Assembly (NCBI GenBank): GCA_900557675.1
Contig: USTO01000011.1
Location: forward strand, 1-15,620
Origin: an uncultured Mollicutes bacterium
GTDB taxonomy: Bacteria > Bacillota_I > Bacilli_A > RF39 > UBA660
DNA: 15,620 nt
Reading direction: 5' to 3'
The position numbers and the translations under genes were made by a program. Under the pieces are notes generated by a model, which worked only from the letters and a program-made list of their open reading frames with translations, was not told where the DNA came from and made no database searches. Shown here piece by piece: positions 1,979 to 15,620 of this stretch (position 1 is the first letter of the stretch; every line of letters begins with the position of its first letter).

Positions 1979-2415
1979 TATCTTAGTTTATATTTTTTAT
2001 GGATTTCTCTATCTATATATCTTTCTTTAATACTTTCTCTTTTATCGTAGTTTTTCTTTCCTTTGGCTAGGGCTATTTCTACTTTGGCGTGACTTCCTTT
2101 GAAATAAATTTTAAGGGGAACAAGGGTATAGCCTTCCATAGTGAGTTTATTTTCTAGTTTTTGGATTTCTTTTTTGTGCATAAGTAGTTTTCTTGTACGG
2201 GTTTCTTCGTGATTAAAGATATTTCCTTCTTTATAGGGTGATATATGGGTATTTAGGAGATAGATTTCTCCGTTTTTTATTATGGCATAGCTATCCTTGA
2301 TGTTAGCTTTGCCGGCACGAATGGACTTTATTTCCGTGCCTTTTAGGACAATACCGGCTTCGAATGTGTCTTCGATTTGGTAGTCATAGCGGGCTTTTCT
2401 GTTATTTATTTCCAT
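1978..2415 (-). CDS. smpB: SsrA-binding protein SmpB
   Basis: SmpB binds the tRNA-like part of tmRNA and delivers it to stalled ribosomes for trans-translation. The OB-fold core is complete, with [19 protein letters not shown] near the start, [19 protein letters not shown] next, HISPYKEGN and [11 protein letters not shown] in the middle, and [12 protein letters not shown] then [11 protein letters not shown] at the end. The C-terminal basic tail ([10 protein letters not shown]) that enters the decoding site is present. The start is set at the ATG at 2415 (145 residues). The upstream in-frame GTG at 2424 is part of the ribosome site GAGGTGA itself and cannot sensibly be the start. It is the last gene of the secG-rnr operon, as in many Bacillota. 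The tmRNA gene that often follows it is not present before 1640. Confidence 0.97.
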
Positions 2416-2460
2416 TTGTTTCACCTCTTTTGGGGGCCCTATGGGGGCTAGTAATTATAT
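2411..2460 (-). repeat. 50-bp direct repeat, copy A (fic/smpB junction)
   Basis: This copy matches 3101-3150 at 47 of 50 positions. The differences are position 8 and two adjacent bases at positions 30-31. It carries the end of the upstream gene (TAA then TAG), a short hairpin with stem GCCC/GGGC and loop CCATA, a C-run, AAAAGAGGTGA as ribosome site, and the first codon and a half of the next gene. The two copies bracket the Fic gene exactly. Confidence 0.85.
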
Positions 2461-3105
2461 TCCATCTATACAGTTATTGTATATCCATTCTGTTAATTCT
2501 TTATTATTATTTGTTTCATAGTATTTGATTAATCTAGTTAAATAGTCTCCTATTTTATCTACGGGTATAGATATTATTCCTTGACCGTTTCTTATCATTT
2601 CTTTATTGGCAATAAGATTGGCTACTCTTTTATTTCCGTCTATAAACATTTGGCTTCTTTGAAGATAACAGAAGAGGTTAATACATTTTTCTAGTTTATG
2701 GGGACTATTTAGTATTTCTTGTAAATCTTTGGTATAGTTACATTCTTCTGGTAATTTGGGACGCCAAGATGTTCCGGTTATGCCTACTCCTCTATCACGG
2801 AAGTTGCCGAGAGGAGTTATGTTTTGGCCTTTACAGATTTCAAAGTGAACTTTCTTTATATAGTCGATAGTTAATTCTTCATCTATGGTATTTAATACAT
2901 ACTCCCAAGCATCTTTGAGGCCTTTTAGTTTTAGCATATCATCTATGGATATTTTACCAGTATTGACATTATTCATAAAGGAAGAGACTTCGGTATAAGA
3001 TATTTTTATTCCTTCTAAATTAGCACTTTTATATATGTTGTCTACTAATTTTCGTTTAGCAAAGAAAATGTTATCTTCCTTAGTCATATTGTATTTGTCT
3101 TCCAT
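2455..3105 (-). CDS. Fic-fold protein with catalytic His replaced by Gln
   Basis: This 216-residue protein has the Fic/Doc fold. Active Fic enzymes transfer AMP or another phosphate-containing group to target hydroxyls using the HPFx(D/E)GNGR loop. Here the loop reads QMFIDGNKR (152-160), so Gln152 replaces the catalytic His. Asp156, Gly157, Asn158 and Arg160 are kept, and Lys159 takes the Doc-like position. An N-terminal inhibitory-helix motif (S/T)xxxE(G/N) is present as S27-A-N-L-E31-G32, typical of class II Fic proteins. GNFRDRGVGI (100-109) fits the conserved flap region. Start at the ATG at 3105, with AAAGAGGTGA just upstream. It sits between the CapA-like gene and smpB and is bracketed by 50-bp direct repeats, which suggests late insertion. 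Activity is uncertain. It could be a non-AMPylating variant or a binding protein. Confidence 0.85.
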   Translation of the reverse strand: MEDKYNMTKEDNIFFAKRKLVDNIYKSANLEGIKISYTEVSSFMNNVNTGKISIDDMLKLKGLKDAWEYVLNTIDEELTIDYIKKVHFEICKGQNITPLGNFRDRGVGITGTSWRPKLPEECNYTKDLQEILNSPHKLEKCINLFCYLQRSQMFIDGNKRVANLIANKEMIRNGQGIISIPVDKIGDYLTRLIKYYETNNNKELTEWIYNNCIDGI

Positions 3106-3150
3106 TTATTTCACCTCTTTTGGGGGCCCATTGGGGGCTAGTAATTATAT
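3101..3150 (-). repeat. 50-bp direct repeat, copy B (CapA-like/fic junction)
   Basis: Partner of copy A at 2411-2460, exactly 690 bp away. It has the same TAG, C-run hairpin (stem GCCC/GGGC, loop CCAAT) and AAAGAGGTGA ribosome site, here serving the Fic gene. The loop bases are swapped (TA to AT) while the stem is conserved. Confidence 0.85.
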
Positions 3151-3157
3151 ATACTTA

Positions 3158-4447
3158 TTATGGTAATGGTTTTACAGTTATAGTATCGTTTAATCTTGTT
3201 ACTATTTCCTTATAGTGATTATATACTTCGGTATAGTTTGGTAAGTAGTTTGCTATATCTTTATTAGAGAATGGAACTACTTTATAGTTATTGTAGTTAT
3301 ATCCGTTATGGTAGGTATATATTAGTTGGTTATCAGTGCTTTCTACTTTAAGGGTTGTTTCGCCTTTACTTACAGTTTTGGTTATTTTGGCACTTCCGAG
3401 TAAACCTACCATTTTATTATAGTAATCGCTTATTTCTTGTCCAGATAGGAAGTTTCCTAGGGAATAGTAAACGAGTGTATCATCTATATAGGTTATAGGC
3501 ATTATAACGTGAGGGTGAGCACCTATAATGATATCGACACCGTTATCGGCAAGGAACTGAGCCATATCTTCTTGATAGGCAGTTGGGGTATGGGTGTATT
3601 CAACACCCCAGTGCATTGCTACCATTAAAAGATCTACTTTATCACGGACTTTATCTATATCTTCTTTTACCTTTTGTTTATAGGCTTGATACTTTGTATC
3701 GGTAGCGGGGTTATTGATATTGTCTATATCTGTTGGCCATACGTTTACGAGATAGTCTTTTCCGTTTGGAACGGGGATACCGTTAGTTCCGTAGGTATAG
3801 CTTAGCATTGTATATTTTATGTGGTTTTTCTCCATTATTTTGACTTCATCTCTTTGTTCGGGACTTGTATAGCTTCCAGCGTATAGTACATCACTGGTAT
3901 TGCCCCAATAGTTTATGGAGTTTTCAATGCTTTTTCCGTTAGTTGAGTAGTATCTATCCATAGTGTGATTACTTGCAAGGGAAACAAGGTTAAATCCGGC
4001 ATCTAGCATTGCGTCACCAGCCTCGTAAGGGGATAGGAACTGAGGATAACTTGATAGACCTAGTTCGGCTCCTCCGAGGATTGTTTCTTGATTATAGTAG
4101 GCAAGATCATAGTTTTGGATTATTTCTTTTATATAGGATACCATTGGTTTGAAGTCATAGCCGTTACCTCCGGCATTCTTAGAGGCCTCATTATAGACGC
4201 CATTATGGATAAGGTGATCGCCGACCATTGCAAGGGTTAATTCGTATTTTTGGGTTTTATCCTTGGTAATGTTTTTTTTGATTTCGGCAATTTTATCGGA
4301 TGGTTTAGTGCCTTCTTTGGAACCGGTTAGTTTGGTTATGGCAAAGGCAATGGCAAGTATAATAAGGGTGAGAATTATTAGGCATATTATTATATTACCT
4401 ATTTTTAGTTTTCTTTTTTGTTTTTTTCTTTTTTTCTTTGTTCGCAT
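3158..4447 (-). CDS. CapA/PgsA-family protein, membrane-anchored phosphatase fold
   Basis: This 429-residue protein belongs to the poly-gamma-glutamate CapA-like family, a metallophosphatase-like fold. A very basic N-terminus (1-15) precedes a single membrane helix (about 16-37), so the domain is extracytoplasmic. Metal-site motifs follow in order: G76-D77-H78, N119-Q-E121, S159-N160-H161, H279-W-G281 and G309-A-H311-P-H313. In capsule operons, family members help polymerise or export poly-gamma-glutamate. No capB or capC is here, so that role is not supported, and a phosphatase or wall-related role is equally possible. The start at the ATG at 4447 has AAAGAGGT 6-7 nt upstream and lies inside the 3' end of rnr (43-nt overlap), so the two are translationally linked. 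Confidence 0.9.
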   Translation of the reverse strand: MRTKKKRKKQKRKLKIGNIIICLIILTLIILAIAFAITKLTGSKEGTKPSDKIAEIKKNITKDKTQKYELTLAMVGDHLIHNGVYNEASKNAGGNGYDFKPMVSYIKEIIQNYDLAYYNQETILGGAELGLSSYPQFLSPYEAGDAMLDAGFNLVSLASNHTMDRYYSTNGKSIENSINYWGNTSDVLYAGSYTSPEQRDEVKIMEKNHIKYTMLSYTYGTNGIPVPNGKDYLVNVWPTDIDNINNPATDTKYQAYKQKVKEDIDKVRDKVDLLMVAMHWGVEYTHTPTAYQEDMAQFLADNGVDIIIGAHPHVIMPITYIDDTLVYYSLGNFLSGQEISDYYNKMVGLLGSAKITKTVSKGETTLKVESTDNQLIYTYHNGYNYNNYKVVPFSNKDIANYLPNYTEVYNHYKEIVTRLNDTITVKPLP

Positions 4448-11860: not shown

Positions 11861-12424
11861 TTAGATTCCTTTCCCTGTTACTTCTACTCTTATAGTTGTA
11901 TTAAGGCTTTCTCCTACTATATTATCATTAGTTATATCTTCTTCTATTAGATATATCCATACGGTATATTTTTGCTCAGTTGTTCCTAATAGTTCATTTG
12001 TTTTTAGAGTTATAGGACTTGTAGTAGTAGAACCATTAAAGGTACCACTTGCTAAGATATTAGTACTTGTTTCATCTCCTTTTGTTATAGCCCATTTTAA
12101 GCCATTATCTGCACTTATATTAGTACCTATATTAGATATATCTATATAGAAGTGAGCATATAAGGGTATATTAGTAGCAGTAGTTTTCTTATATATACTT
12201 ATAGTAGAGTGCATTCCCTCATTAAATGTAGTTACTGGTTCTAAACTACTATTAGTAGTATCCTCTCCCTTAGTATATACTATATAATCATCATATCCAT
12301 TAGTATTTACTACTACATTCGTTTTAGTAGTAGTACTCCACTTAAATAAAGCTACAGTTATACCTATTACCACTAATATTAAAGTTATAGTAAATAATAC
12401 TATCTTTATCCTATTTCCTTTCAT
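11861..12424 (-). CDS. Small membrane-anchored exported protein, TasA/camelysin-like region possible
   Basis: The 187-residue protein has a basic start (MKGNRIK), one membrane helix or signal anchor (about 6-26) and a Thr/Asn-rich extracellular part rich in beta strands. The late segment, YTVWIYLIEEDITNDNIVGESLNTTIRVEVTG, has the pattern of the last strands of TasA/camelysin-type sandwiches. The same pattern occurs in the N-terminal half of the 502-residue neighbour (INVRMWLSEDTPNSEAGKGF). The family call is tentative. The ATG at 12424 is chosen because the GTG at 12433 lies in the GAGAGTG ribosome site. It is the first of a three-gene run with the rnfC-like and rnfD-like genes and is 1 nt from rnfC. 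Confidence 0.7.
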   Translation of the reverse strand: MKGNRIKIVLFTITLILVVIGITVALFKWSTTTKTNVVVNTNGYDDYIVYTKGEDTTNSSLEPVTTFNEGMHSTISIYKKTTATNIPLYAHFYIDISNIGTNISADNGLKWAITKGDETSTNILASGTFNGSTTTSPITLKTNELLGTTEQKYTVWIYLIEEDITNDNIVGESLNTTIRVEVTGKGI

Positions 12425-12475
12425 ATATATCACTCTCTTTCCTTATTATAATATAATAGCTATTAATTTATCTAT

Positions 12476-13513
12476 TTAAGAGCAGTTATCACATCCTAAG
12501 GTATATGGGTCATCGAAGTGGCCATTACCTCCCGTTACATAGACACTAGATTTTAGATAGAAGGTGGGGCGAGACCCATACGGATAGATCGAACTGTTGC
12601 CGTACGCGATGCCACTGTACACATACCACACGTTATTCGTGCCAGAGGCGTAAGGCGTGAGTGTCCACTCCCAGCCTTTATATAACCAATTCTTATTTCC
12701 AAAGTAAAACTGACCTTGGGTGGTTGTATCAGTACTAGCGTAATAACCACTAGCATATAAGTAATCACTTAGGTACATTAGTCCTATTTTAGAAGTTACA
12801 CTAGTATCTCCTGTACCAGGTCCGGAAGGCGTACAAGAGTTACCTCCTCTTTCACATAGATACCAGTTCTGTTTACTCTGTGCTGTACCACTACCATATA
12901 AATACCAAGTAGTAGTTTCTATATATCCTCTTAAACTACTATCAATGCCATAAGTTATAATATCACTACAATCTTTGGTTTTATAACTATTATTAGAATA
13001 GTAGTAAGTCCAATTAGCACAATCTCCATAAGTACTACTAGTATCAGTCTTATTATAAAAGTATTCATTTAAGAGAACATTTAAATTAGCTTTAGAAGTC
13101 TTAGATTTACCTGTCCAGTCATTAGCATATCCGGAGTATGTACCGGCAGAATTATCAGTGTTATATACACCCCAACTATATCCACCTAAGGAGCGAGCTC
13201 TTATTAGTTTTACTAATTCTGTTCCAGTTACACCGTGACTATTACTATCAAAGACACCTATTATTCTATATAAGTCATTATTAAACTTAACATAGTTATT
13301 TACTTCCGCTCCTATATATCTATATTCGTGACTGTTAGTATAGTATACACCACTAGCTCCGGCACTCCAACTACTACCTTTATTTAAGGCTTTAACAGTA
13401 TCTACTAGAGTTGTGCCTACGGCATAACTCTTTTTAGATACTGTTAAAGATATTATTACAGCACCTACTATTATTATAAATATTAGGGATGTTATTAGTT
13501 TTTTCTTATCCAT
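12476..13513 (-). CDS. Exported protein with C-type-lectin-like domain, paralogue 1
   Basis: This 345-residue secreted or membrane-anchored protein has a basic start (MDKKK) and a hydrophobic helix (about 6-24) ending SKKSYA, a possible cleavage site. The rest is one domain shared with the upstream gene, from YRYIGAEVNNYVKFNNDLYRIIG to the end. The closing RPTFYLKSSV...GG..-DPYTL is typical of DUF1566/DUF6273-like, C-type-lectin-fold domains, which are often variable binding modules. Cysteine pairs around C137/C155 and in CERGGNSC probably form disulfides. Residues 285-314 are a hypervariable stretch set between nucleotide-identical flanks. The ATG at 13513 has AAAGGG 9 nt upstream. It lacks the sandwich domain found in paralogue 2 and ends with a CDNCS tail not seen there. 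Confidence 0.85.
   Translation of the reverse strand: MDKKKLITSLIFIIIVGAVIISLTVSKKSYAVGTTLVDTVKALNKGSSWSAGASGVYYTNSHEYRYIGAEVNNYVKFNNDLYRIIGVFDSNSHGVTGTELVKLIRARSLGGYSWGVYNTDNSAGTYSGYANDWTGKSKTSKANLNVLLNEYFYNKTDTSSTYGDCANWTYYYSNNSYKTKDCSDIITYGIDSSLRGYIETTTWYLYGSGTAQSKQNWYLCERGGNSCTPSGPGTGDTSVTSKIGLMYLSDYLYASGYYASTDTTTQGQFYFGNKNWLYKGWEWTLTPYASGTNNVWYVYSGIAYGNSSIYPYGSRPTFYLKSSVYVTGGNGHFDDPYTLGCDNCS
12548..12688 (-). repeat. Variable cassette, copy 1 (identical flanks around 90 variable nt)
   Basis: The flanks 12661-12688 (28 nt) and 12548-12571 (24 nt) are identical to those in copy 2. The enclosed codons 12661-12572 differ from copy 2 at 43 of 90 positions with no indel. GC is clearly higher than in the rest of the gene. 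The downstream flank begins with the GC-rich CGCCCCACC, as expected for the fixed 3' end of a mutagenic-homing target. Confidence 0.75.
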
Positions 13514-13549
13514 CTATATCGACCCTTTCTTTTATTTTATCTTTACCTT

Positions 13550-13579
13550 GGCCGAGGGAGATATATACCTCCCCCAGCC
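13550..13579. repeat. GC-rich hairpin/cruciform between the two paralogues
   Basis: GGCTGGGGGAG and CTCCCTCGGCC (minus strand) pair over 11 positions with two G-U pairs, around an 8-nt loop GTATATAT. No T-run follows on either strand, so it is not a normal terminator. It lies 76 nt past the end of the variable cassette of paralogue 2. Confidence 0.7.
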
Positions 13580-13591
13580 TTGACAAAGATA

Positions 13592-15100
13592 TTAACCTTG
13601 TTCAAGGATATACGGATTATTATAAGTTCCATACCCTCCAGAAATCTTGACATCAGATTTTAGATAGAAGGTGGGGCGCCATCCATACGGTTCGCGCGCG
13701 AAGGTGTTTACGGTACGGCCTTGTGCGACAATCCACATACTATACGAATTGGAGGCGTAATGCGTCTGTGTCCACTCCCAGCCTTTATATAACCAGTTCT
13801 TTTTACCATAATCAAATTTTCCTTGGGCAGCAGTATCAGTACTAGAATAATAGCCACTAGCGTATAAGTAATCACTTAAATACATTAACCCCATTTTACT
13901 TGTTACGCTAGCATCGCCAGTATTTGGACCAGAGGTAGTACAAGAGTTACCTCCTCTTTCACATAGATACCAGTTTTGTTTACTTTGATCCGTGCTGCTA
14001 CCATATAAGTACCAAGTAGCATTTTCTATATAACCACTATACTTAGGATCAATACCATAACCTACAATATCACTGCAATCATTAGTACGATAATTAGTAT
14101 CACTACTATAATATGTCCAATTACTACAAGATCCATAAGTACTACTAGTATTAGTCTTATTTATAAAGTATTCATTTAATAGGACATTAAGATTAGCTTT
14201 AATACCAGTAGCTTTACCTGTCCAATCATTCTTATAGTTAGAATAAGTACCACTTGTATTACTAGTATTATATATACCCCAACTATTACCAGATAAAGGA
14301 CTAGCCATTATTAACTTAACTAGGTACTGGCCTGTTACACCGTGACTATTTTCATCAAAGACACCTATTATTCTATATAGATCGTTATTAAATTTAACAT
14401 AGTTATTGACATTAGCTCCTATATAGCGATAATCGTGGTATTTTGTAGTTCCGTCATCAGCAGTATATTTATTAGTTGCATATACGCCACTATCGGTAAG
14501 ATCGGCGGGCCAAGTATCTCTTTTACTTAGTTCCATAATAGTATCAGCAGCAGTCTTAGGTTTCTCTGTTCCTGTAGTATACAATGCATAACCATTAGTT
14601 GTTGCTTTAGCACTAAAACCTTTACCGGCTTCACTATTAGGGGTATCTTCACTAAGCCACATTCTTACGTTTATTTTCTTACTTTCTCCTGGTACGAGGG
14701 TTATGTCTTTACTTAGAATATTGGTTGTGTTTAGGGTATAGATATCTCCATTATCTACTTTTATTTTTATATATTTATTATCTATTAGATTAGTAGAGGT
14801 GGTATCTAATAGTTCGATATTGAATTTATATGTTAAATTACCGGTATTGGTTACTTTAAGGATATAGGGATCACTTGCTAGGCCTTCTTCATCGGATATG
14901 GGGAAGGCACTAGCAAGTGTAAGGGTAGTATTTTCATCGAAGGTTAAGTCTAAGAGGCCGGTAGTATAGTCTTCAGTTGTTCCATAGTCTTTATTTACAT
15001 AGAGGGCATAAGATGATCCACTCATTGCTATAGCGGTAAATATAATGGCTATGGTGAAGGTTAAGGCAACGATGGTTTTGTTTTCTAATATTTTATTCAT
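13592..15100 (-). CDS. Exported two-domain protein: TasA-like sandwich plus C-type-lectin-like domain, paralogue 2
   Basis: This 502-residue surface protein has a signal sequence (1-32, ending GSSYA, then LYVN). A beta-sandwich like TasA/camelysin follows at about 33-180 (FPISDEEGLASDPYILKVTN, LVPGESKKINVRMWLSEDT). A C-terminal domain homologous to paralogue 1 spans about 215-502 and ends RPTFYLKSDVKISGG...NNPYIL. Four cysteines match those of paralogue 1 (S-CSNW, NDCSD, CERGGNSC). Residues 445-474 form the hypervariable stretch. The start is the ATG at 15100, with AAAGGA 8 nt upstream. The in-frame ATG at 15109 is too close to that site to be used. It probably binds a ligand or partner at the cell surface; no sortase motif is seen. 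Confidence 0.87.
   Translation of the reverse strand: MNKILENKTIVALTFTIAIIFTAIAMSGSSYALYVNKDYGTTEDYTTGLLDLTFDENTTLTLASAFPISDEEGLASDPYILKVTNTGNLTYKFNIELLDTTSTNLIDNKYIKIKVDNGDIYTLNTTNILSKDITLVPGESKKINVRMWLSEDTPNSEAGKGFSAKATTNGYALYTTGTEKPKTAADTIMELSKRDTWPADLTDSGVYATNKYTADDGTTKYHDYRYIGANVNNYVKFNNDLYRIIGVFDENSHGVTGQYLVKLIMASPLSGNSWGIYNTSNTSGTYSNYKNDWTGKATGIKANLNVLLNEYFINKTNTSSTYGSCSNWTYYSSDTNYRTNDCSDIVGYGIDPKYSGYIENATWYLYGSSTDQSKQNWYLCERGGNSCTTSGPNTGDASVTSKMGLMYLSDYLYASGYYSSTDTAAQGKFDYGKKNWLYKGWEWTQTHYASNSYSMWIVAQGRTVNTFAREPYGWRPTFYLKSDVKISGGYGTYNNPYILEQG
13655..13795 (-). repeat. Variable cassette, copy 2
   Basis: The flanks 13768-13795 and 13655-13678 are identical to copy 1, while 13768-13679 is highly diverged and CpG-rich (for example GCGCGCGAA). 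Between the copies 20 of 30 residues differ. The invariant ones are mostly structural (T, Y, A, S, W, V, G, P-Y-G). Confidence 0.75.
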
Positions 15101-15131
15101 AGTTAACATCCTTTCTGGTGGGGGCTATATA

Positions 15132-15188: not shown

Positions 15189-15620
15189 TTAGAGCCATTT
15201 GGAAGTGGGGATATCGAGTATTATTTTGCTTTCGTAGGTAGTGGTGAGGTTTATTATTTTTTTGATAGTGGCTTTGATTTGGCTTGCATCTTGGAGGGTT
15301 ATTTCAGAGGGGGTGAGGTTTTTATGGAGGAGGCGGTTATATTTGCGGGAGGTTACGTAGTAGTAGAGGCTTTTATCGAGGGCGTTTATTATTTTTAATT
15401 GGGACTGGGAGGTGGGAGTGGCGGAGAATATGAGGTCACGATACCAGTTTATGAGGAGAGATGAGAGGGGGTCGTCTTCGGGGTATTTGGCGGAGATGAT
15501 GTGGTCGTAATTGGGACAGGCGGATAGGATTTGGGTGACGTAGGTAATGTCGATGGTGGTGGTTTCAATGGGGGGTGCGGTATCTAAGGGGGATGCGGTA
15601 TTTAAGGGGGGGGTTTGGGT
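15189..15620 (-). CDS. Unidentified protein, C-terminal 143 residues only
   Basis: The frame is open from the right edge to TAA at 15189-15191. It starts with a Thr/Pro-rich linker made of 6-residue repeats (LNTASP, LDTAPP). A probably all-helical domain follows: ITYVTQILSACPNYDHII, LLINWYRDLIF, LKIINALDKSLYYYVTSRKY, IKATIKKIINLTTTYESK. The Trp-Tyr-Arg-Asp helix recalls C-terminal domains of clamp-loader-like proteins, but this is too weak to name it. Codons are strongly C-rich (ACC, CTC, CCC), unlike the AT-rich codons of every neighbour. No signal peptide can be judged, as the start is outside the window. Confidence 0.7.
   Translation of the reverse strand, partial: TQTPPLNTASPLDTAPPIETTTIDITYVTQILSACPNYDHIISAKYPEDDPLSSLLINWYRDLIFSATPTSQSQLKIINALDKSLYYYVTSRKYNRLLHKNLTPSEITLQDASQIKATIKKIINLTTTYESKIILDIPTSKWL
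15570..15605. repeat. 18-bp tandem repeat, two copies plus a partial third
   Basis: Two 18-bp units (15570-15587 and 15588-15605) share GGGGG-TGCGGTAT-TAA with small changes, and a third G-run begins at 15606. Read in frame on the minus strand they code LDTAPP and LNTASP, a flexible linker in the partial protein. Confidence 0.7.

What the first reader, a model, noticed from the sequence alone, without database searches (positions are those of the whole stretch)
12548..13795. Paired surface-protein genes carry a diversity-generating-retroelement-like variable cassette
The two lectin-like paralogues are identical over 28 nt and 24 nt at matching places. The 90 nt between these flanks differ at 43 positions, without a single indel, changing 20 of 30 residues. 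Ordinary divergence would not leave synonymous sites in the flanks frozen while the centre is scrambled. Among the 47 invariant centre positions only 7 are A on the coding strand, which is low for this AT-rich genome and is expected if adenines of a shared template are randomised. The 3' flank starts GC-rich (CGCCCCACC), like the initiation site of mutagenic homing. One caution: about 12 variable positions have A in neither copy, and third codon positions vary too, which classical AAY-rich templates do not predict. No reverse transcriptase or template repeat is in the window.
Basis: partly seen in the sequence, partly recalled or inferred. Interest (0 to 1): 0.88.

Follow-up and report, generated by a model that had tools for sequence, protein, structure and literature searches.

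The report
Paired DGR-type hypervariable lectin genes
Two neighbouring surface-lectin genes of an uncultured bacterium carry a short stretch that differs wildly between copies and strains; close relatives rewrite the same stretch with a known mutation-making reverse-transcriptase system, so this is a new but recognisable example, whose own machinery was not found.

Summary
In detail: two paralogous lectin-like genes (12476-13513, 13592-15109, minus strand) share 28- and 24-nt identical flanks around an 89-nt core with 43 differences. The DGR reading holds by homology: orthologues 60-65% identical sit beside a DGR-type RT and a template repeat. All mismatches fall on template adenines in L003 (13/13, 15/15), L001 (13/13) and L173 (12/12, 15/15); L174 has 9/11. 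In 84 gene-A and 98 gene-B proteins, variation concentrates at the same 14 codons, where K/E/Q/M/W, unreachable from AAY templates, are depleted. The predicted fold is C-type-lectin-like.

Not supported: one shared template. 17 of 43 differences involve no A, and VR identity is 46/89, against 72-100% in seven pairs from relatives. The two VRs look written from different template versions, or one was imported by recombination. No RT or template lies on this 15.6-kb contig and no genome is held for it, so the window's own DGR core is unidentified. Verdict: new member of a known kind, probably served from elsewhere in the genome.

The parts
12476..13513 (-). Gene A (VP2-like target), 345 aa: N-terminal membrane segment and one lectin-like domain with a C-terminal VR
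   Evidence: ORF; 64-65% identity to VP2 of G001, G002 and G004; model pLDDT 81.2
13592..15109 (-). Gene B (VP1-like target), 505 aa: extra N-terminal domain, then the same lectin-like domain and VR
   Evidence: ORF; same two-target layout (about 500 aa and about 350 aa) as VP1/VP2 of L003 and L173
12572..12673 (-). Variable region of gene A (codons 281-314)
   Evidence: Column entropy in 84 proteins; GC3 of the 90-nt core 21/30 vs 71/316 in the rest of the gene
13679..13780 (-). Variable region of gene B (codons 444-477)
   Evidence: Column entropy in 98 proteins; GC3 of the core 18/30 vs 116/476
12661..12688 (-). 28-nt upstream flank of gene A, identical to 13768-13795 in gene B; contains hypervariable codon 281
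13768..13795 (-). 28-nt upstream flank of gene B
12548..12571 (-). 24-nt downstream flank of gene A, identical to 13655-13678 in gene B
13655..13678 (-). 24-nt downstream flank of gene B
11861..12433 (-). 190-aa predicted membrane-anchored protein next to gene A; weak similarity (24-30%, E 1e-5 to 7e-4) to VP N-terminal parts and small ORFs in relatives; possible partner, function unknown
   Evidence: tblastn; no Pfam or NCBIfam family

Best explanation
Genes A and B are the two target genes of a cell-encoded diversity-generating retroelement. Each carries a VR in the C-terminal part of a C-type-lectin-like domain. In relatives an RT, with an Avd-like partner, copies an adjacent AAY-rich template repeat while replacing its adenines, and the copy overwrites the VR (shown there by TR/VR anatomy, not by experiment). 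In the window the two targets lie side by side without that core, so they are most likely written by an RT and TR elsewhere in the genome or just beyond the contig's right end (inferred). The two window VRs came from different template versions, or one arrived by recombination; exchange between strains and between the two paralogues adds variety (inferred from shared protein sequences).
For: DGR anatomy with adenine-only mismatches in L001, L003, L173 and 9/11 in L174. RT profile closest to solved chain 8ub7 (E 3e-18) ahead of group II enzymes (6e-7); nearest annotated phage RT match is phage nd12, a DGR phage. Avd-like gene: NF033474 E 4.7e-12, PF22296 E 9e-8, both under the curated cut-offs. 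The same 14 hypervariable codons in genes A and B, 2.5-3.7 bits. K/E/Q/M/W at 13 of them: 14/481 (L/S class) and 55/754 (Q/W class) against 327/3262 and 806/6335 at polymorphic backbone sites. All 13 such codons of VR A end in C or T (hand count). GC3 jump in both cores. VR on strands of a lectin-like fold. G004 offers a parallel: a target on another contig (L005) fits that genome's TR at 50/53 non-A positions with 11/25 adenines changed.
Against: No RT, Avd or TR on the contig and none identified for the species. VR B: 4 of 13 hypervariable codons end in A (hand count), it does not resemble any of 16 relatives' TRs above controls (11; 132 control segments max 13), and the window pair is too divergent for one current template. 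VR lengths vary (18 of 84 gene-A and 21 of 98 gene-B VRs are not 34 residues), which adenine substitution alone cannot do. G005, with the same rnfC neighbourhood (L008), has 16 VP match places and no RT match. The RT clusters listed share only one longest-contig length above 5 kb with the VP clusters (compared by eye).
Confidence: 0.65

Rival explanations
1. Relic targets: this lineage lost its RT/TR core. The VRs were DGR-written in the past and now change only by recombination among paralogues and strains and by ordinary mutation and selection.
For: No core on the contig; G005, which shares the rnfC neighbourhood, has many VPs and no RT match; the window pair's VRs are unusually divergent; leftover DGR targets are described in Treponema denticola (PMC4891356, passages).
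Against: 71 distinct VRs in 84 gene-A and 88 in 98 gene-B proteins; hypervariable codons still strongly AAY-like, above all in the L/S class; GC3 still high in both cores.
Confidence: 0.22
2. A recombination system that draws on a repertoire of silent or paralogous cassettes (pilin-like), not reverse transcription, makes the diversity.
For: Identical VRs in gene-A and gene-B homologues with the joint in or near the conserved flank (P0084/P0126, P0080/P0122); VR length changes; third-position differences.
Against: No third copy on the contig; residue spectrum and GC3 point to AAY templates; relatives have RT and TR. The shared VRs may be assembly chimeras.
Confidence: 0.09
3. Ordinary paralogue divergence under diversifying selection on a binding surface, with conserved flanks; no special mechanism.
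For: The flanks encode nearly invariant residues (NWLYKG, RPTFYLKS), so part of their identity is constraint.
Against: 2.5-3.7 bits at the same 14 codons in two loci with conserved residues between them; GC3 jump; adenine-limited TR/VR mismatches in orthologues.
Confidence: 0.03

Closest known systems
Two-target DGR loci of related Bacilli MAGs found here (L003 BRZ_EV__bin65, L173 = G067; also L179 = G004)
   Same: Same target pair (about 500 aa and about 350 aa), same lectin-like domain, VR at the C-terminal end
   Different: There Avd, RT and TR lie between the two targets; in the window the targets are 78 nt apart with no core
Tentaclins and other DUF6273-like C-lec DGR targets of gut phages (PMC10743442, passages)
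   Same: C-type-lectin domain with a DGR-written surface hairpin; two targets per cassette in phages nd4 and nd12; nd12's RT region is the best phage match to the L003 RT
   Different: Phage proteins with Ig-like chains and an N-terminal lectin domain; the window genes lie among housekeeping genes, have a membrane segment and a C-terminal VR, and gene A finds no phage record
Remote or leftover DGR targets: Thiohalocapsa PB-PSB1 (PMC10907252) and Treponema denticola (PMC4891356), passages
   Same: Targets without an adjacent RT, explained by action in trans or by loss of the core
   Different: There the VR was matched to a TR; in the window no template is available to match
N-terminal C-type-lectin-like domain of Thomasclavelia ramosa IgAse (9qa6; PMC12237041, passages)
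   Different: 16-19% identity; no VR is mentioned in the passages read; the window proteins have no catalytic domain

Membership tests
Diversity-generating retroelement (DGR) target gene | DGR-type RT encoded with the target | tested here: inconclusive
   Met in relatives; not on the window's contig; no genome held for the window
Diversity-generating retroelement (DGR) target gene | Template repeat that differs from the VR at template adenines only | tested here: inconclusive
   Met in L001, L003, L173 and others; no template on the contig, genome not held
Diversity-generating retroelement (DGR) target gene | Differences between VRs limited to adenines of one template | tested here: not met
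   17 of 43 differences without A; 9 of 14 at third positions. Applies only if both VRs have the same template
Diversity-generating retroelement (DGR) target gene | Population hypervariability confined to the VR | tested here: met
   VR codons 2.5-3.7 bits; mean of 25-column blocks that hold no VR codon 0.04-0.96; protein level, from a set clustered at 90% identity
Diversity-generating retroelement (DGR) target gene | Variable codons of AAY origin (no K, E, Q, M, W) | tested here: inconclusive
   Strong depletion in the L/S class (14/481), weaker in Q/W (55/754); backbone control 10-13%
Diversity-generating retroelement (DGR) target gene | VR on a C-type-lectin-like fold at the C-terminus | tested here: met
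Diversity-generating retroelement (DGR) target gene | Avd-like accessory protein | tested here: inconclusive
   Present in relatives, below curated cut-offs; not on the contig
Diversity-generating retroelement (DGR) target gene | Hairpin downstream of the VR, as in phage BPP-1 (recalled; not universal) | tested here: inconclusive
   No inverted repeat of 8 nt or more within 60 nt distance in 12476-12720 or 13592-13830
DUF6273 (PF19789) | Score over Pfam's gathering cut-off | tested here: not met
   Gene A 15.1 bits against 23.5; gene B no match
Silent-cassette gene conversion system | Reservoir of silent partial copies | tested here: inconclusive
   No third copy on the 15.6-kb contig; the rest of the genome is not available

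The most novel reading that the evidence does not exclude
A two-stage diversity system: a DGR acting from elsewhere in the genome, with more than one template version, writes AAY-type cassettes, and homologous recombination through the conserved flanks then moves finished cassettes between the two lectin genes and between strains, so that useful variants are kept, copied to the partner gene and spread instead of only being mutated again.
Probability: 0.33. Interest if true: 0.72.

Novelty: new member of a known kind. Interest (0 to 1): 0.52.

Why it matters
It adds a cellular set of DGR targets: paired surface lectins in uncultured Bacilli with genomes of about 0.9-1.5 Mb. RTs like that of L003 were found in 142 of 386 sampled genomes of one family, though not each was shown to be a DGR. 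Because two loci share the same 14 variable codons and many homologues are public (809 and 1381 proteins), the question of how DGR-made variants are selected, kept and exchanged in natural communities becomes testable with existing metagenomes. L003 and L173 are compact two-target loci that could serve as models.

Tried and rejected
One shared template with A at every variable position: a fit to the counts gives a substitution chance of about 0.66 and needs roughly 58 A in 90 nt (my arithmetic), i.e. 64%, against 27-46% A in the 16 template repeats of relatives. It predicts the number of invariant A well (about 7, observed 7), which speaks for it, but not the absence of A at third positions in core A (0 of 30). 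Rejected as the sole explanation.

RT of the window's species: P0262 and P0263 are 62-64% identical to RTs of G003/G004/G067. P0262 shares the longest-contig length 27,317 with gene-B homologue P0141, but I put the chance of such a match at about 1 in 10 (rough estimate). P0263's longest contig (1,377,830) matches no listed VP cluster, which speaks against it. Only the best 120 of 1858 RT hits were listed. Left open.

The window's own genus was not reached: best VP identity 65% in 386 genomes and 64% in 292, draws that overlap; one search asked for P0263 at a strict cut-off in 262 genomes, nothing rang, so it shows nothing. Viral contigs gave no relative of gene A and no match to a 3'-flank pattern. 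Profile A2 found no solved structure by sequence. Solved DGR variable proteins were not among the fold matches, which excludes nothing. The regex missed most VR copies in G005, so no count is taken from it.

The L/S and Q/W classes are not clean template markers: in gene A, position 285 is linked to backbone positions 112 and 76 more strongly than to 314, so lineage structure is part of it.

Papers: six searches. The two aimed at the taxon (0 papers; 1, a liver review) and the one on DUF6273 (8 of 89 listed) showed no paper on DGRs of these Bacilli; that does not prove absence. Of the papers cited I saw passages only.
Full report
What is there. The window is one whole contig (the longest contig of P0001, the window's own protein, is 15,620 bases) with 33.8% GC. 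By translation it holds ordinary genes on the minus strand: penicillin-binding-protein-like, SmpB-like, RNase R-like, SecG-like and prolyl-tRNA-synthetase-like (names recalled from the translations), a Fic-domain protein and RnfC and RnfD homologues, tRNA-Pro and tRNA-Ala. At its right end two genes encode proteins with an N-terminal membrane segment and a shared lectin-like domain: gene B (505 aa) and, 78 nt downstream, gene A (345 aa).

The observation. One search confirms 28- and 24-nt identical flanks and 43 differences in an 89-nt core, 20 of 30 residues changed, no indel. The core has 53% GC, gene A 36%. GC3 is 21/30 against 71/316 (p 2e-7) in A and 18/30 against 116/476 (p 7e-5) in B. 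Core A has no A at third positions (0/30), core B five.

Relatives. The genome-contig scan returned 63 loci, nearly all titled Bacilli, Bacillales, Tenericutes, Erysipelotrichaceae or Clostridiales MAGs. PF00078 rang in 14 of the 18 genomes that I gave it. In L003 the order is VP1 (504 aa), a 135-aa ORF, an Avd-like ORF (116 aa), RT (365 aa), TR, a 96-aa ORF, VP2 (351 aa); L173 is the same with a 120-aa first ORF; L179, more distant, also has its core between two targets. L001 and L002 show only the VP2 side. A scan for ungapped near copies with mismatches at template A gave, as A-mismatches of all mismatches, 13/13 and 15/15 (L003), 13/13 (L001), 12/12 and 15/15 (L173), 9/11 (L174), 11/12 and 12/13 (L179), 22/22 (L148), 14/14 (L165), 17/17 (L172), 16/16 (L163), 13/13 (L167), 11/11 (L157), 13/14 and 8/10 (L147, two template-like copies), 18/20 (L102), 15/18 (L178), and 19/22 twice for the two identical VRs of L176. 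The scan itself asked for at least 75-80% of mismatches at A, so the full agreement in many loci is what counts. A GC filter dropped AT-rich chance hits, and L043 (11/13) was left out of the TR set as it looked like an ordinary coding repeat. Of the 30 RT loci (L143-L172, 1.5 kb flanks) 11 showed such a pair. L003-like RTs occur in 142 of 386 genomes at E 1e-15 or better; I did not check each for a template. The RT profile's best solved match is 8ub7 (3e-18; that this is the BPP-1 DGR enzyme is recalled), ahead of a group II enzyme (6e-7); its motif reads IGxxxNQ, where DGR RTs usually have IGxxxSQ (recalled).

The window's genes belong to this target family: 64% identity to VP2 of G001 and G002, 65% of G004, 60% of G067. 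What the window lacks is the core: no RT, Avd or TR is on the contig. Its place beside rnfC is shared with L008 of G005, a genome with 16 VP match places and no RT match.

Population evidence. I aligned 84 gene-A proteins (window included, 80-100% identical) and 98 gene-B proteins (window plus P0121-P0217, 71-90%) out of the 120 listed for each search. Mean entropy of 25-column blocks that hold no VR codon is 0.04-0.96 bit. Codons 281, 293, 294, 297, 299, 300, 302, 304-307, 309, 310 and 312 have 2.5-3.7 bits in gene A, and the equivalent codons in gene B have 2.8-3.6, with W296, V298, G301, R315 and P316 conserved in 75-84 of 84. There are 71 distinct VRs in 84 gene-A and 88 in 98 gene-B proteins. 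At backbone identity 0.93-0.96 the median VR identity is 0.50 (91 pairs); at 0.98 or more it is 0.97 (23 pairs). The source is clustered at 90% identity, which favours different VRs among close backbones.

The adenine signature in proteins. AAC or AAT codons whose adenines are replaced cannot give K, E, Q, M or W. At 13 hypervariable codons (281 left out, because W is common there) these make up 14 of 481 residues in the 37 L285/S314-class VRs and 55 of 754 in the 58 Q/W-class VRs; the other 29 of the 124 VRs of standard length (distinct within each locus) were of neither class, and VRs of other lengths were not used. At backbone sites above 1 bit they are 327/3262 (A) and 806/6335 (B). In VR A of the window all 13 such codons end in C or T; in VR B 9 of 13, the other four in A (hand count).

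Why the two window VRs are not from one template. Differences with and without A are 21:8 at codon positions 1-2 but 5:9 at position 3 (Fisher p 0.04). Gene A is L/S, gene B is Q/W, and both classes occur at both loci, although class is also tied to backbone lineage. Target pairs in relatives keep VR identities of 64/77, 62/78, 59/82, 60/82, 62/78 and 62/77, and one pair is identical (86/86); the window pair has 46/89. Only for L003, L173, L179 and L176 was a common template seen by the scan. VR A scores 20 against the best relative's TR (132 control segments at most 13, 60 codon shuffles at most 17); VR B scores 11, no better than controls.

Exchange. Six protein pairs in five VR groups share a VR exactly on backbones only 0.81-0.87 identical. 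P0125 has window gene B's VR, but the identical run extends 164 residues upstream and to the C-terminus, so a whole domain moved, or the sequence is a chimera. Nearer to cassette movement, gene-A homologue P0084 and gene-B homologue P0126 share the VR, 11 residues before it (beginning in the conserved flank) and the 28 to the C-terminus, while 40-residue blocks further up are 34/40 (including those 11), 33/40 and 22/40; P0080/P0122 share 46 residues before the VR. Proteins alone cannot exclude assembly chimeras.

Known context. PMC8144416 (passages) reports DGRs more common in Firmicutes among other groups and says that its search would miss remote targets. Trans action and leftover targets are described in PMC10907252 and PMC4891356 (passages). 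In G004 the L005 target, on another contig than the core, fits that genome's TR at 50/53 non-A positions with 11/25 adenines changed.

Shown here: the anatomy, the DGR in relatives, the population pattern at protein level. Inferred: service from elsewhere in the genome, two template versions, biological exchange, and ligand binding by the VR face.

Noticed in passing
L006, L008, L183 (G005, Lapin-027__bin90): A genome with 16 VP match places, several in tandem and one group next to rnfC as in the window, but no RT match; it may be a lineage that kept targets without a DGR core.
   Followed up: partly
L147 (G333:C4), 2615-2721 and 3476-3533: Two different template-like copies near one RT and VR; possibly a DGR with two templates, which is the situation proposed for the window.
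   Followed up: no
L002, about 1914-2000: The presumed template behind the RT no longer fits its own VR in its 5' half (the scan finds no VR for it), suggesting that templates change or decay.
   Followed up: partly
L003 4663-4953; L001 2030-2350; L173 6433-6723; L179 7029-7331: A small ORF of about 96-106 aa between template and VP2 recurs and has no Pfam match (L003, L001); possible new DGR accessory.
   Followed up: partly
window 15189-15620: Open ORF of 143 aa at the contig's right end in a stretch of about 50% GC, with no family above cut-off and no match in the loci held.
   Followed up: partly
window 2410-2460 and 3100-3150: A 51-nt repeat (94% identical) in front of two neighbouring genes (SmpB-like and Fic), overlapping their start regions.
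   Followed up: no
proteins P0220, P0222, P0224-P0226, P0228-P0238 (not in the window): Proteins of about 841-860 aa with PF12810 match gene B over 63% of its length at 66-82% identity: longer members of the same target family.
   Followed up: no
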